In this document: positions 3,396 through 10,070 of the stretch, piece by piece
How positions within the stretch are numbered: the first letter of the stretch is position 1
Layout of the letters: every line of letters starts with the position of its first letter
DNA from: Fusobacterium varium
GTDB taxonomy: Bacteria; Fusobacteriota; Fusobacteriia; Fusobacteriales; Fusobacteriaceae
Length of the DNA stretch: 64,000 nt
Direction: 5' to 3'
Assembly (NCBI GenBank): GCA_002356455.1
Contig: AP017968.1
Coordinates: 1,984,001 to 2,048,000, forward strand
The notes under the pieces: generated by a model
What the model saw: the letters and a program-made list of their open reading frames with translations, nothing else
The model's database searches: none
Told to the model about the DNA's origin: nothing
Program-made: the position numbers and the translations under genes

Positions 3396-3830
3396 TTATA
3401 ATTTATTATATTCTTTATCATCAACTGGTTCACACCATTCATTTGAACAATTTTCACCTGGCACTTCAACAGCTATATGACTAAACCATGAATCTGCCTT
3501 TGCTCCATGCCAGTGCTTTACTTCAGGAGCTATAACAATTATCATTCCCGCTTTAAGGCTCACTGCCTTCTTTCCTTCTTCCTGATACCATCCTTCACCT
3601 GCTGTGCAGATTAAAATCTGTCCTCCTCCTTTATCAGCATGATGAATGTGCCAATTATTACGACATCTTGGCTCAAATGTCACATTTGCAAGAAATACGG
3701 AAGAAGCTCCCTGTTCCATAAGAAAATTTAAAAACGAATTTCCTGTGAAATATTCTGCATATGCATCATTAGGTTTTCCAATTCCAAAAATATTTATTTT
3801 TTCAAATTCCTCTTTTTTCATTGTTTTCAT
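3396..3830 (-). CDS. cupin-domain protein
   Basis: Single-domain cupin of 144 aa. Motif 1 is visible as NNWHIHHADKGGGQILICTAGEGWYQEEG (shown by its parts: NWHIHH, about residue 60, then the G-x5-G turn). Motif 2 is IAPEVKHWHGA (about residue 107). The His and Glu residues would hold a metal. No signal peptide is present, unlike its neighbours. Cupins of this group often sit beside CMD-like genes, and sometimes are fused to them, which fits here. Substrate unknown. The ATG at 3830 has AGGA 5 bases upstream. Confidence 0.8.
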   Translation of the reverse strand: MKTMKKEEFEKINIFGIGKPNDAYAEYFTGNSFLNFLMEQGASSVFLANVTFEPRCRNNWHIHHADKGGGQILICTAGEGWYQEEGKKAVSLKAGMIIVIAPEVKHWHGAKADSWFSHIAVEVPGENCSNEWCEPVDDKEYNKL

Positions 3831-7136: not shown

Positions 7137-7165
7137 TTGTTAAATTAATCATTTTAAGTTATACT
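7137..7165 (+). promoter_or_regulatory. candidate promoter of the SIR2-like unit
   Basis: TTGTTA (7137-7142), a 17-base spacer and TATACT (7160-7165) give a reasonable sigma-70 match. It would start RNA about 35 bases before the ATG at 7206. A second TTGACT lies at 7115-7120 but has a weaker partner. Confidence 0.5.
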
Positions 7166-7205
7166 AATAGTGATAGAACAATTAACTAACAAGGTAGGTG
7201 ATACC

Positions 7206-8015
7206 ATGAATAACTTTTTTGATAAGTTTGAAAAAGATCAAAAATTGAATCTTTTTACTGGAGATTTTCTAAGCAAAATCACTGGTTACCCAACAAGACT
7301 TGAAATAGCCGAATCTGTTCTGTCTGATATCAAACAGTCAGCTAAAGGCTATATTAAAAATATAAATTCTTTAGCTGAAACATCTCAGACTTATCTTGAT
7401 GCAGTAGTAAATTCAAAAAAAGGATTAATAAAACACATCAGAGAAATTTTTGATTTAAAACATCATAAAAATGTTGAAATATATAGTGATATCTTTAATT
7501 CTGGATATTTTGAAGCTATATTTACCATGAATTATGATGTAATAATTGAACGTTTGTTTGCTAATCTTGTTTCTGTATCTACTCCTTTAAAGCCATCAAA
7601 AACAACTGAAGGAAAAATAAGATTTTATAAAATTATGGGGACTATCTATAATTCTGAAGATCTTTTTTTGACAAGCCAAGATATCAGAAAATTAAAAGTC
7701 CTTGAATTTTATAAAGACTTTTTTAATAATTTAAGTTTAGAACTGACAAGTAGACCTACTATTTTTTTGGGAGTAGATCTTAAAGATCCAGATTTCTTAA
7801 ATATGCTTGATTTTCTTTTATCAATGACAAAAAACAATGAACAGCCTGTCTATGTGGTAACATCAACTTCCATAATAGATCCTAAGGTTACTGACTTTAT
7901 AAATAAATATAACATAAAACTTACAACATTAAGTGAAAAAGAGCTTCTTGCTAATCTTCATACTGTAATTGATGCTGATGGAGATGATGTTTTAAAAAAA
8001 AAGTTAGTAAGGTAA
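7206..8015 (+). CDS. degenerate SIR2-like domain protein
   Basis: A 269-aa protein with the order of motifs of SIR2-like proteins: a nucleotide loop at LFTGDFLSKITGYPT (near residue 19), TMNYDVIIERLF (about residue 113), then KIMGTIYNSEDLFLTSQDI and FLGVDLKDPDF. The first glycine loop is altered, and the usual catalytic His before Gly (LHG) is Met (IMG), so NAD hydrolysis may be lost. I use the ATG at 7206, with AAGGTAGG upstream. The frame ends with ...LKKKLVR right after a run of nine As, while the neighbouring -1 frame stays open for 408 more codons (next entry). The fold call is from motif order only. It may be a scaffold or sensor rather than an enzyme. Confidence 0.6.
   Translation: MNNFFDKFEKDQKLNLFTGDFLSKITGYPTRLEIAESVLSDIKQSAKGYIKNINSLAETSQTYLDAVVNSKKGLIKHIREIFDLKHHKNVEIYSDIFNSGYFEAIFTMNYDVIIERLFANLVSVSTPLKPSKTTEGKIRFYKIMGTIYNSEDLFLTSQDIRKLKVLEFYKDFFNNLSLELTSRPTIFLGVDLKDPDFLNMLDFLLSMTKNNEQPVYVVTSTSIIDPKVTDFINKYNIKLTTLSEKELLANLHTVIDADGDDVLKKKLVR
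7997..8003 (+). promoter_or_regulatory. candidate -1 ribosomal frameshift site
   Basis: A AAA AAG sits in the zero frame of the SIR2-like gene within a run of nine As (7994-8002). This is the best-known bacterial -1 slippery heptamer, as in dnaX. A GGAG at 7980-7983 lies 13 bases upstream and could act as the stimulatory Shine-Dalgarno. Slipping back by one base joins the two frames. A true mutation, a sequencing error or RNA polymerase slippage would look the same here. Confidence 0.5.
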
Positions 8016-9226
8016 TATCTCTAGGAGAACATACCACAGAGCATCTGGATATTACCAACAAAAATAGTAAAAATAATATTGATACCATTAAAATACCATT
8101 GTTTCCAGAAGATTCTTCTGAAAAATACATAATAGAAAATAATAAAACAAATAATGAAATCTCTGATAACTCTATTTCTGTAAACAAAGACACTGGTATA
8201 GTTCAGAATAACGATGAAATAATTACCTCAATGGATAATATAATTTCTGATGACTCTATTTCTGTAAATGAAGATATTAATATAGTTCAGAATAACAATG
8301 AAACAATTACCTCAACGAATAATATAATTTCTGATAATTCTGTTTTTATAAACGAAGATATTAAAAAAGTTGCAGCTGGAGAAAACACTGAACCTAGACA
8401 TATAGTTATTTCAACTGATAACCCATCTTTTGAAAGTGGTCTTGAAATAAAATATACTTCTTTACAGCTTAAAAATTTTCCAATTAGGTACAAAAATTTC
8501 TCCGAAAAAATGGATTTTGATGAAATAGTAAATATTGGTACTACTTCAATAAAGATTGGAAATACTAGTATTCATAATGTTACATTAAAAATACTGGTAT
8601 ACAGTAAATTTAAGTTGTTAGAAATAAAAACCAGAGAATTTAAACTGGCTTTAAGTATAGAGCTTAATGATAAGCAAACACTTGTTAAAAAAGATGATTA
8701 CTTTAAATATGATATCCATGATAAAGTTAAAACTTCTCGTTTAAGTGAAGTTGTGGAAATTTTCAAAAGAATATTTGCTGGTGAAAATATTACTTTTAAA
8801 TATAATCAGCTTATAGGAGATATATCTTTTGAAAACAGACTTGAAGTTTATAAATTTACTATTATAACTGAAACTATTAACTCATATAAATTTATAACAA
8901 ATGAACTGGAACTTTATAAAGAAAAAAATATAAATGATGTTAAAGATAGTTTTTACTCACTTTTTCTTTTAAATTCTTATTTGAAAGATGAAAACCTTTC
9001 TAACTGGGTTAATTTCAGAATAAAAAATAATTATAATATCCTTCCAGGAGATATAGTAAGTTTTGAAAAAATACATAATTTACAGCTCCATGGAATAAAT
9101 TTTGATTTAAAAGAACATGTTAAACTTATAGAACCTATTTCTCCTAGAGAAATAAATGAAAAAAATGAAATATGCTGTTATAGAAAAGCAGTGGAAATAA
9201 CTTTAGAAAAAATAAAAAAAATCTAA
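8003..9226 (+). CDS. frameshift-linked C-terminal protein with tandem repeats
   Basis: Open frame of about 408 codons, lying -1 to the SIR2-like gene and starting at the slippery run. It has no ATG, GTG or ribosome site at its beginning; the first usable start is a TTG at 8099 without a Shine-Dalgarno, so it probably is read only as an extension. The first third is acidic and Ser/Asn-rich and contains a 28-residue tandem repeat (core IISDDSISVNEDINIVQNNN), about 2.6 copies. The rest (from about 8390) is a mixed alpha/beta domain that I do not recognise. It ends 16 bases before the alarmone synthetase. If joined, the product would be about 675 aa. Confidence 0.6.
   Translation, partial: VSKVISLGEHTTEHLDITNKNSKNNIDTIKIPLFPEDSSEKYIIENNKTNNEISDNSISVNKDTGIVQNNDEIITSMDNIISDDSISVNEDINIVQNNNETITSTNNIISDNSVFINEDIKKVAAGENTEPRHIVISTDNPSFESGLEIKYTSLQLKNFPIRYKNFSEKMDFDEIVNIGTTSIKIGNTSIHNVTLKILVYSKFKLLEIKTREFKLALSIELNDKQTLVKKDDYFKYDIHDKVKTSRLSEVVEIFKRIFAGENITFKYNQLIGDISFENRLEVYKFTIITETINSYKFITNELELYKEKNINDVKDSFYSLFLLNSYLKDENLSNWVNFRIKNNYNILPGDIVSFEKIHNLQLHGINFDLKEHVKLIEPISPREINEKNEICCYRKAVEITLEKIKKI
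8156..8375 (+). repeat. 84-bp in-frame tandem repeat
   Basis: About 2.6 copies of an 84-bp unit encoding 28 residues each (ISDNSISVN... / ISDDSISVN... / ISDNSVFIN...). It keeps the reading frame and makes a low-complexity linker between the SIR2-like part and the C-terminal domain. Confidence 0.8.
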
Positions 9227-9242
9227 TATGAAGAGGTGAAGT

Positions 9243-10025
9243 ATGTCTGACTTATTGGATAAAGATCAGTTTTTCAAAAACTTTTGTATTGATGAAGAGT
9301 ATTTTGAATCTACAGGATTGATCTGGGATGAATTAGTAAAGATATATGAAGATTATAATAAACTTGTTCCTTATCTTGAAAAAGAAGCAGAACATATAGT
9401 ATCAAAACTTATAGATGTACCTAATGTACATTCAGTGAGAAGGAGAGTAAAAAAACCTGAACACCTTATAGAAAAAATAATCCGTAAAGGAAATAAATAT
9501 GTGAGCAGAGGCATTTCTGTTGAAACATACAAAGACATAGTGACTGACCTCATAGGTATCAGAGTTCTCCATTTATTTAAAGATGACTGGAGAGGAATAC
9601 ATGATGAAATAATGAAATTATGGGAAATAAGAGAAACTCCTCAGGTAAATATAAGACGTGGAGATTACAATGTAGCTCAGCTTCAGGAAAGTATTTCTGA
9701 ACTAAATTGTGAAATAGTAGTAAGAGATCATGGTTATCGTTCTGTACATTATCTTATTGGGATACCTGTAACAAGTCATGATGAAATTCTTGTAGAAATA
9801 CAAGTTAGAACAGTTTTTGAAGAAGCATGGAGCGAGATTGATCATTTGATGAGATATCCATATGACATTGACAATCCTATTATTACTGAATATCTTGGTA
9901 TTTTTAATAGAATTGTAGGAAGTGCTGATGAAATGGGAACTTTTATCAAAAATATGAAATCTCAATTCACTGTACATCCGGGAGAAGACACTCACTATAG
10001 AGAACTTGATAATAAATTCAAATAG
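9243..10025 (+). CDS. small alarmone synthetase (RelA/SpoT synthetase domain)
   Basis: Stand-alone (p)ppGpp synthetase-type protein of 260 aa, moving pyrophosphate from ATP to GDP or GTP in the cytoplasm. The synthetase domain fills residues 50-205: VRRRVKKPEHLIEKI, YKDIVTDLIGIRVLHLF with the metal-binding Asp, HGYRSVHYLI for substrate binding, and EIQVRTVFEEAWSEIDH with the catalytic Glu. All key residues appear intact. No hydrolase, TGS or ACT domain. It starts 16 bases after the preceding frame with a GAGGTG site, so it is co-transcribed with the SIR2-like unit. Related synthetases act either in stress signalling or as toxins of toxin-antitoxin systems; which applies here is not decided. 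Confidence 0.88.
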   Translation: MSDLLDKDQFFKNFCIDEEYFESTGLIWDELVKIYEDYNKLVPYLEKEAEHIVSKLIDVPNVHSVRRRVKKPEHLIEKIIRKGNKYVSRGISVETYKDIVTDLIGIRVLHLFKDDWRGIHDEIMKLWEIRETPQVNIRRGDYNVAQLQESISELNCEIVVRDHGYRSVHYLIGIPVTSHDEILVEIQVRTVFEEAWSEIDHLMRYPYDIDNPIITEYLGIFNRIVGSADEMGTFIKNMKSQFTVHPGEDTHYRELDNKFK

Positions 10026-10030
10026 TGATT

Positions 10031-10070
10031 AAAAATCTTCAATATTTAACATAATATTGAAGATTTTTTT
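10031..10070 (+). terminator. terminator after the alarmone synthetase
   Basis: A perfect 16-bp stem (10031-10046 with 10053-10068), a 6-base loop and a T tract. It closes the SIR2-like/synthetase operon. Confidence 0.93.

What the first reader, a model, noticed from the sequence alone, without database searches (positions are those of the whole stretch)
7137..10070. SIR2-like protein, frameshift-joined repeat protein and small alarmone synthetase in one operon
A promoter, three tightly packed frames and a 16-bp-stem terminator define a closed unit. The first protein has the motif order of SIR2-like domains found in many antiphage systems, and the last is an apparently complete (p)ppGpp synthetase, a class that includes toxins. 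I know of no described system with this pair. A defence or toxin-type role is inference.
Basis: partly seen in the sequence, partly recalled or inferred. Interest (0 to 1): 0.75.

Follow-up and report, generated by a model that had tools for sequence, protein, structure and literature searches.

The report
Conserved frameshifted SIR2-fold gene beside alarmone synthetase
This bacterial gene unit, shared across the Fusobacteriaceae, encodes a SIR2-shaped protein that has lost a key catalytic residue, and the ribosome apparently has to slip back one base at a built-in signal to make its long form; next to it is a small (p)ppGpp-making enzyme, so it looks like a core housekeeping unit under unusual translational control and not a phage-defence island.

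Summary
An SIR2-like ORF (7206-8015), a second ORF in the -1 frame (to 9226) and a small alarmone synthetase (SAS, 9243-10025) form one unit, ended by a perfect 16-bp stem. The toxin/defence reading is not supported. The SIR2-like gene is single-copy in nearly all 51 of 61 Fusobacteriaceae genomes that have it, with conserved neighbours and no phage match. Its fold matches ThsA and DSR2, but the ThsA H152 position is never His (0 of 48 sequences). The SAS is family-wide.

The real finding is the frame junction. In 28 of 32 split loci the SIR2 ORF ends 2-4 codons after an in-phase A_AAA_AAG (or A_AAA_AAA), the dnaX-type slip site, and the C-terminal domain (X) follows in the -1 frame. In 14 loci a 9-12 bp stem overlapping the stop codon follows; it shows compensatory changes. 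Other lineages encode SIR2-X in frame, so the long protein is real. I conclude this is conserved programmed -1 frameshifting in a core, non-mobile gene, giving a 269-aa short and a 673-aa long product. X matches no known family or solved fold. Function is inferred: a nucleotide-related regulator partnered with the SAS in most lineages. Nothing was tested at the bench.

The parts
7206..8015 (+). SIR2-fold ORF (0 frame), 269 aa; lacks the ThsA H152 equivalent (Met144 here)
   Evidence: Pfam SIR2_2 E=1.7e-17; AlphaFold model and Foldseek match to ThsA/KomC/DSR2; residue counts
7980..7983 (+). SD-like GGAG, 13 nt before the slip site (possible stimulator)
   Evidence: enriched across loci, modest
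7997..8003 (+). Slippery heptamer A_AAA_AAG in phase (inside the A9 run 7994-8002)
8011..8056 (+). Downstream stem: arms 8011-8020 and 8047-8056, 7-nt spacer from the slip site, overlaps the 0-frame stop 8013-8015
8003..9226 (+). -1 frame: disordered-looking linker with 84-nt repeats (8151-8318) and C-terminal domain X
8429..9223 (+). Domain X as modelled (265 aa, pLDDT 92); no known family or confident fold match
9243..10025 (+). Small alarmone synthetase (SAS), 260 aa, own RBS AGAGGTGA
10031..10070 (+). Intrinsic terminator, 16-bp stem plus U run

Best explanation
The unit is a vertically inherited core operon of Fusobacteriaceae whose first gene uses dnaX-type programmed -1 ribosomal frameshifting. 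Ribosomes read the SIR2-fold domain, reach A_AAA_AAG, are slowed by a hairpin about 7 nt downstream (and probably by an SD-like pairing upstream), and a fraction slip back one base. Non-shifting ribosomes stop at the stop codon at the foot of the hairpin and make a short SIR2-only protein (269 aa). Shifting ribosomes add a linker and domain X (673 aa). That the shift is programmed rests on comparative sequence evidence only. The function is inferred: the SIR2 fold is probably not an NAD+ hydrolase and more likely binds a nucleotide or acts as a scaffold, with the short/long ratio setting a regulatory state. In most lineages it is co-encoded with, and may regulate, the (p)ppGpp synthetase next to it. 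The confidence given is for the frameshift and the core-gene status; for the regulatory role alone it is about 0.3.
For: Junction: 28 of 32 split loci carry the in-phase heptamer just before the stop; elsewhere in the same genes the chance is about 1.8% per 8-codon window, and the two codons are AAA-AAG at 25 of 28 sites versus 13 of 110 Lys-Lys pairs elsewhere. Stem: in all 10 g1 loci plus G030, G033, G036 and G037, ranked in the top 0-3.3% of positions in each gene. Covariation on 13 distinct stems: 5 of 8 pairs changed on both sides, score 0.401 versus 0.108 shuffled (0/500), slid controls at most 0.24. Window fold z=-2.6 to -2.8. Synonymous conservation is highest or near highest at the junction in four clades. 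X is homologous in split and in-frame forms. In G027 the -1 frame has no ATG/GTG/TTG for 866 nt, so independent initiation of X from those codons is excluded there. SAS directly follows X in 34 genomes. No His at the H152 position.
Against: No protein, ribosome-profiling or reporter data. g2, g3, g8, g13 and G034 have the heptamer but no clear stem. Four split genomes lack the heptamer. Some g5 genomes and g11, g12 and g14 have SIR2-X in frame with no evident short product, so the short form is not universally required. The window's own A9 also permits transcriptional slippage. In g8, g13 and g14 the SAS lies elsewhere in the genome and g12 shows no SAS match, so the partnership with the SAS is not obligatory. 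The stem arms were chosen because they pair, which favours the pairing counts.
Confidence: 0.85

Rival explanations
1. The frame change is made by transcriptional slippage at the A run, not by the ribosome.
For: The window has A9, and A9-A10 runs are known to slip in dnaX of Thermus (PMC3711429). Cetobacterium sp. 2A (G002) has A10 and is in frame.
Against: Most relatives have only A6 or A7 before the G, where RNA polymerase slips little; the conserved phase, the AAA-AAG ending and the hairpin at ribosomal spacing fit ribosomal slipping.
Confidence: 0.1
2. Two separate proteins: X is translated on its own by coupling or re-initiation.
For: Public annotation of Ilyobacter polytropus lists two CDS; g4-type loci lack the heptamer.
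Against: No conserved start codon with SD-like element at the head of the -1 frame; none at all for 866 nt in G027; several lineages carry SIR2-X as one ORF.
Confidence: 0.08
3. Antiphage or toxin-type system: SIR2 NADase effector with an alarmone toxin.
For: Fold and sequence nearest to ThsA; SAS enzymes include toxins.
Against: Core and essentially single-copy in the family, not patchy; ThsA H152 equivalent never His; no phage match; PADLOC matches are to the SIR2 domain only.
Confidence: 0.07
4. Pseudogene or phase-variable gene.
For: Frameshift at a homopolymer; G020 has an internal stop and contig end; G002 has A10 and is in frame.
Against: All 28 heptamer loci keep X in the same -1 phase although run length varies; both parts conserved across genera; synonymous constraint at the junction.
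Confidence: 0.03

Closest known systems
dnaX programmed -1 frameshifting (E. coli tau/gamma)
   Same: A_AAA_AAG slip site, SD-like element upstream, hairpin downstream, one gene giving two C-terminal forms
   Different: Different gene. Here the shift makes the long form (in E. coli dnaX the short one), an arrangement PMC3711429 reports for some other dnaX genes; the hairpin covers the 0-frame stop
ThsA (Thoeris), DSR2 and KomC SIR2 NADases
   Same: SIR2 fold, nearest in sequence (6lhx E=7e-11) and structure (Foldseek E=8e-11)
   Different: ThsA H152 equivalent lost, GAG motif altered, ThsA's SLOG part not matched, core vertical gene, unknown X domain
Small alarmone synthetases RelP/RelQ; fpRel is listed for Fusobacteria by Atkinson 2011 (PMC3153485)
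   Same: RelA_SpoT domain with synthetase motifs; nearest solved structures are GTP pyrophosphokinases of this class
   Different: Far below the NCBIfam YjbM cut-off (38 versus 320 bits); subgroup membership not tested
copA -1 frameshifting in E. coli (PMC5009743)
   Same: A chromosomal, non-mobile bacterial gene with -1 frameshifting
   Different: There the shift gives a short product; here it extends the protein

Membership tests
Programmed -1 ribosomal frameshifting (dnaX type) | In-phase slippery heptamer X_XXY_YYZ | tested here: met
   28 of 32 split loci; window 7997-8003
Programmed -1 ribosomal frameshifting (dnaX type) | Downstream structure starting 5-8 nt after the slip site (PMC4066793) | tested here: met
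   Window: 7 nt spacer, 10-bp stem; 14 loci of g1, g5 and g6 with covariation; absent or unclear in g2, g3, g8, g13
Programmed -1 ribosomal frameshifting (dnaX type) | Upstream SD-like stimulator | tested here: inconclusive
   At least 4 matching nt in 71% of loci versus 30% of control positions; strongest in g3, weak in several g1 loci
Programmed -1 ribosomal frameshifting (dnaX type) | Both frames conserved and the fused product used | tested here: met
   X conserved; in-frame fusions in relatives
Programmed -1 ribosomal frameshifting (dnaX type) | Measured shift product | not testable with these tools
   needs a reporter or mass spectrometry
SIR2 antiphage NADase (ThsA-like) | SIR2 fold | tested here: met
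SIR2 antiphage NADase (ThsA-like) | Catalytic Asn and His (ThsA N112 and H152; both mutations abolish NAD+ cleavage, PMC7272460) | tested here: not met
   Asn in 31 of 48, His in 0 of 48
SIR2 antiphage NADase (ThsA-like) | Patchy, mobile distribution usual for defence genes | tested here: not met
   51 of 61 genomes in the family, partly syntenic
Small alarmone synthetase | RelA_SpoT synthetase domain with conserved motifs, stand-alone | tested here: met
   a separate long RelA_SpoT protein (735 aa frame) exists in the genome
Toxic SAS | Growth inhibition neutralised by an antitoxin | not testable with these tools
   no assay; core distribution argues against

The most novel reading that the evidence does not exclude
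The frameshift is a regulatory sensor that couples the state of translation to the dose of a nucleotide-binding SIR2 pseudo-enzyme and its alarmone synthetase; and in the F. gastrosuis/F. vincentii lineage the same junction is bridged by an undescribed recoding event at TAT GCC TRA, flanked by an SD-like GGTGAT and a hairpin just after the stop.
Probability: 0.15. Interest if true: 0.85.

Novelty: new variant of a known kind. Interest (0 to 1): 0.68.

Why it matters
[quoted passage not shown] This adds a gene conserved across a bacterial family, with natural variants of the signal (heptamer plus stem, heptamer alone, another junction, in-frame fusion) that make it a natural series for studying how such signals arise and are lost. 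It also points to a SIR2-fold pseudo-enzyme and an unknown domain X tied, in most lineages, to a (p)ppGpp synthetase, so a link between alarmone control and SIR2-like proteins becomes testable. It is a warning for annotation: the Ilyobacter polytropus record lists the two halves as separate proteins, and SIR2 hits of this type should not be counted as defence genes.

Tried and rejected
Defence reading: rejected on distribution and on the missing catalytic residue. Pseudogene or sequencing error: rejected by conservation. Independent start for X: no conserved start. Known family or fold for X: Pfam, PDB sequence, Foldseek on PDB and on viral models, and VIA-align gave nothing convincing; the weak barrel-like matches (Z up to 4.1) cover residues 19-138 only, and the rest was barely tested. 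Rfam: no match. First genome-contig scan with the single SIR2 protein found nothing, and the SIR2 alignment was too diverse to scan with; the SAS alignment worked. SAS relatives outside the phylum (L132-L140) have no SIR2-X beside them. Literature searches for Fusobacterium with SIR2 and frameshifting, or SIR2 with alarmone terms, found no report of this system; Antonov 2013 and Atkins 2016 do not mention it in the text searched, but their supplementary cluster lists were not read. A first attempt to hand in the report was malformed and nothing was accepted.

Full report
The window lies in a 4.12-Mb Fusobacteriaceae genome (G000, position C1:1984001-2048000); the named relatives recovered are Fusobacterium, Cetobacterium, Propionigenium and Ilyobacter. 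The promoter match is not above chance.

Distribution. The SIR2-like protein was found in 51 of 61 genomes of the family, once per genome except one duplicated match in G015; most genomes without it are incomplete or belong to g7, g9 and g10. Domain X was found in 52 of 98 genomes of the phylum, all in this family. The SAS was found in nearly all of the family and, at this level of similarity, not in the other families of the order. The own genome also has one long RelA_SpoT protein. The SAS directly follows X in 34 genomes and in an F. vincentii record. In g8 and g13 SIR2-X sits between a Lon protease and glutamine synthetase III with no SAS nearby; in g8, g13 and g14 the SAS is elsewhere, and in g12 it was not found.

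The SIR2 domain. Profile search gives ThsA as the nearest solved protein (6lhx, E=7e-11), and the model matches ThsA, KomC and DSR2. ThsA needs N112 and H152 (PMC7272460). Across 48 aligned sequences (one a duplicate) the H152 column holds L, F, M, N or Y and never H; the N112 column holds N in 31; the GAG motif is altered to GDF or similar. Loss of NAD+ hydrolysis is the likely consequence but is inferred.

The junction. In 28 of 32 split loci the 0-frame ORF ends 2-4 codons after an in-phase A_AAA_AAG (25) or A_AAA_AAA (3), and X continues in the -1 frame. In-phase heptamers occur elsewhere in the same genes at 0.0022 per codon, about 1.8% for an eight-codon window, and the two codons are AAA-AAG far more often than at other Lys-Lys pairs. 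In all ten g1 loci and in G030, G033, G036 and G037 a 9-12 bp stem overlaps the 0-frame stop; its score lies in the top 0-3.3% of positions within each gene. Thirteen distinct stems show 96% pairing and two-sided changes at five of eight pairs, beyond shuffled and slid controls. Caveats: the arms were picked because they pair, related sequences are not independent, and a combined probability over loci ignores kinship. An SD-like stretch upstream is enriched but not universal. Synonymous codons are most conserved, or nearly so, at the junction in four clades. These are the known ingredients of bacterial -1 frameshifting (PMC4066793).

The long product. X aligns over about 230 residues between split genomes and those in which SIR2 and X are one ORF: G002, four g5 genomes, g11, g12 and g14. 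G002 differs from its split relatives by an A10 run that puts X in frame. In G027 the -1 frame has no usual start codon for 866 nt. So the SIR2-X protein is the product to be expected, 673 aa in the window if the slip occurs on the AAG at 8001-8003, beside a 269-aa short form.

Exceptions. g6 (G036, G037) has CAA AAA CAG before an 11-12 bp stem at the same place, a plausible single-tRNA slip. The g4 loci (F. gastrosuis, G016) and F. vincentii end in TAT GCC TRA with no A run, an SD-like GGTGAT 12-15 nt upstream and a hairpin just after the stop. How X is reached there is unexplained. g2, g3, g8, g13 and G034 have the slip site without a clear stem.

Function. X has a confident model (pLDDT 92) but no known family or convincing fold match. 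My best reading, held at about 0.3, is a SIR2-fold regulator or scaffold, perhaps nucleotide-binding, whose long form acts with the SAS in most lineages. Shown by sequence: conservation, frames, slip site, stem, loss of His. Inferred: that the shift happens, its efficiency, loss of NADase activity, partnership with the SAS.

Comparison. As a mechanism it works like dnaX frameshifting. As a gene it is not dnaX, nor a member of the SIR2 antiphage NADases, since a defining catalytic residue was tested and not met. The literature held here gave no report of this gene or pairing, with the limits that many journals and the supplementary lists were not covered.

Noticed in passing
L141 near 3744-3830 (F. 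vincentii NZ_CP084075.1); G015 and G016 junctions: SIR2 frame ends TAT GCC TGA/TAA with no A run, an SD-like GGTGAT 12-15 nt upstream and a hairpin right after the stop; X is open in the -1 frame. Way of joining unknown.
   Followed up: partly
G002 (L048), SIR2-X junction: An A10 run puts SIR2 and X in frame, while the close relative G001 has the split form with A7.
   Followed up: partly
NZ_CP084075.1: A 2.1-Mb record called a plasmid (pSB055A) in the plasmid collection; the size and the core genes found on it suggest a chromosome.
   Followed up: no
G020 contig C47 end: SIR2 frame has an internal stop and the contig ends there; no SAS or X found in this genome, a possible lineage-specific loss or assembly gap.
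   Followed up: no
G015 C1:14003 and C1:1799066: SIR2-X-SAS region appears twice in a single-contig F. gastrosuis assembly, near both ends, perhaps an uncut overlap of a circular contig.
   Followed up: no
window 8151-8318 and relatives: Linker between SIR2 and X varies greatly in length among species (X frame 267-518 aa in split genomes) and carries 84-nt repeats here.
   Followed up: partly
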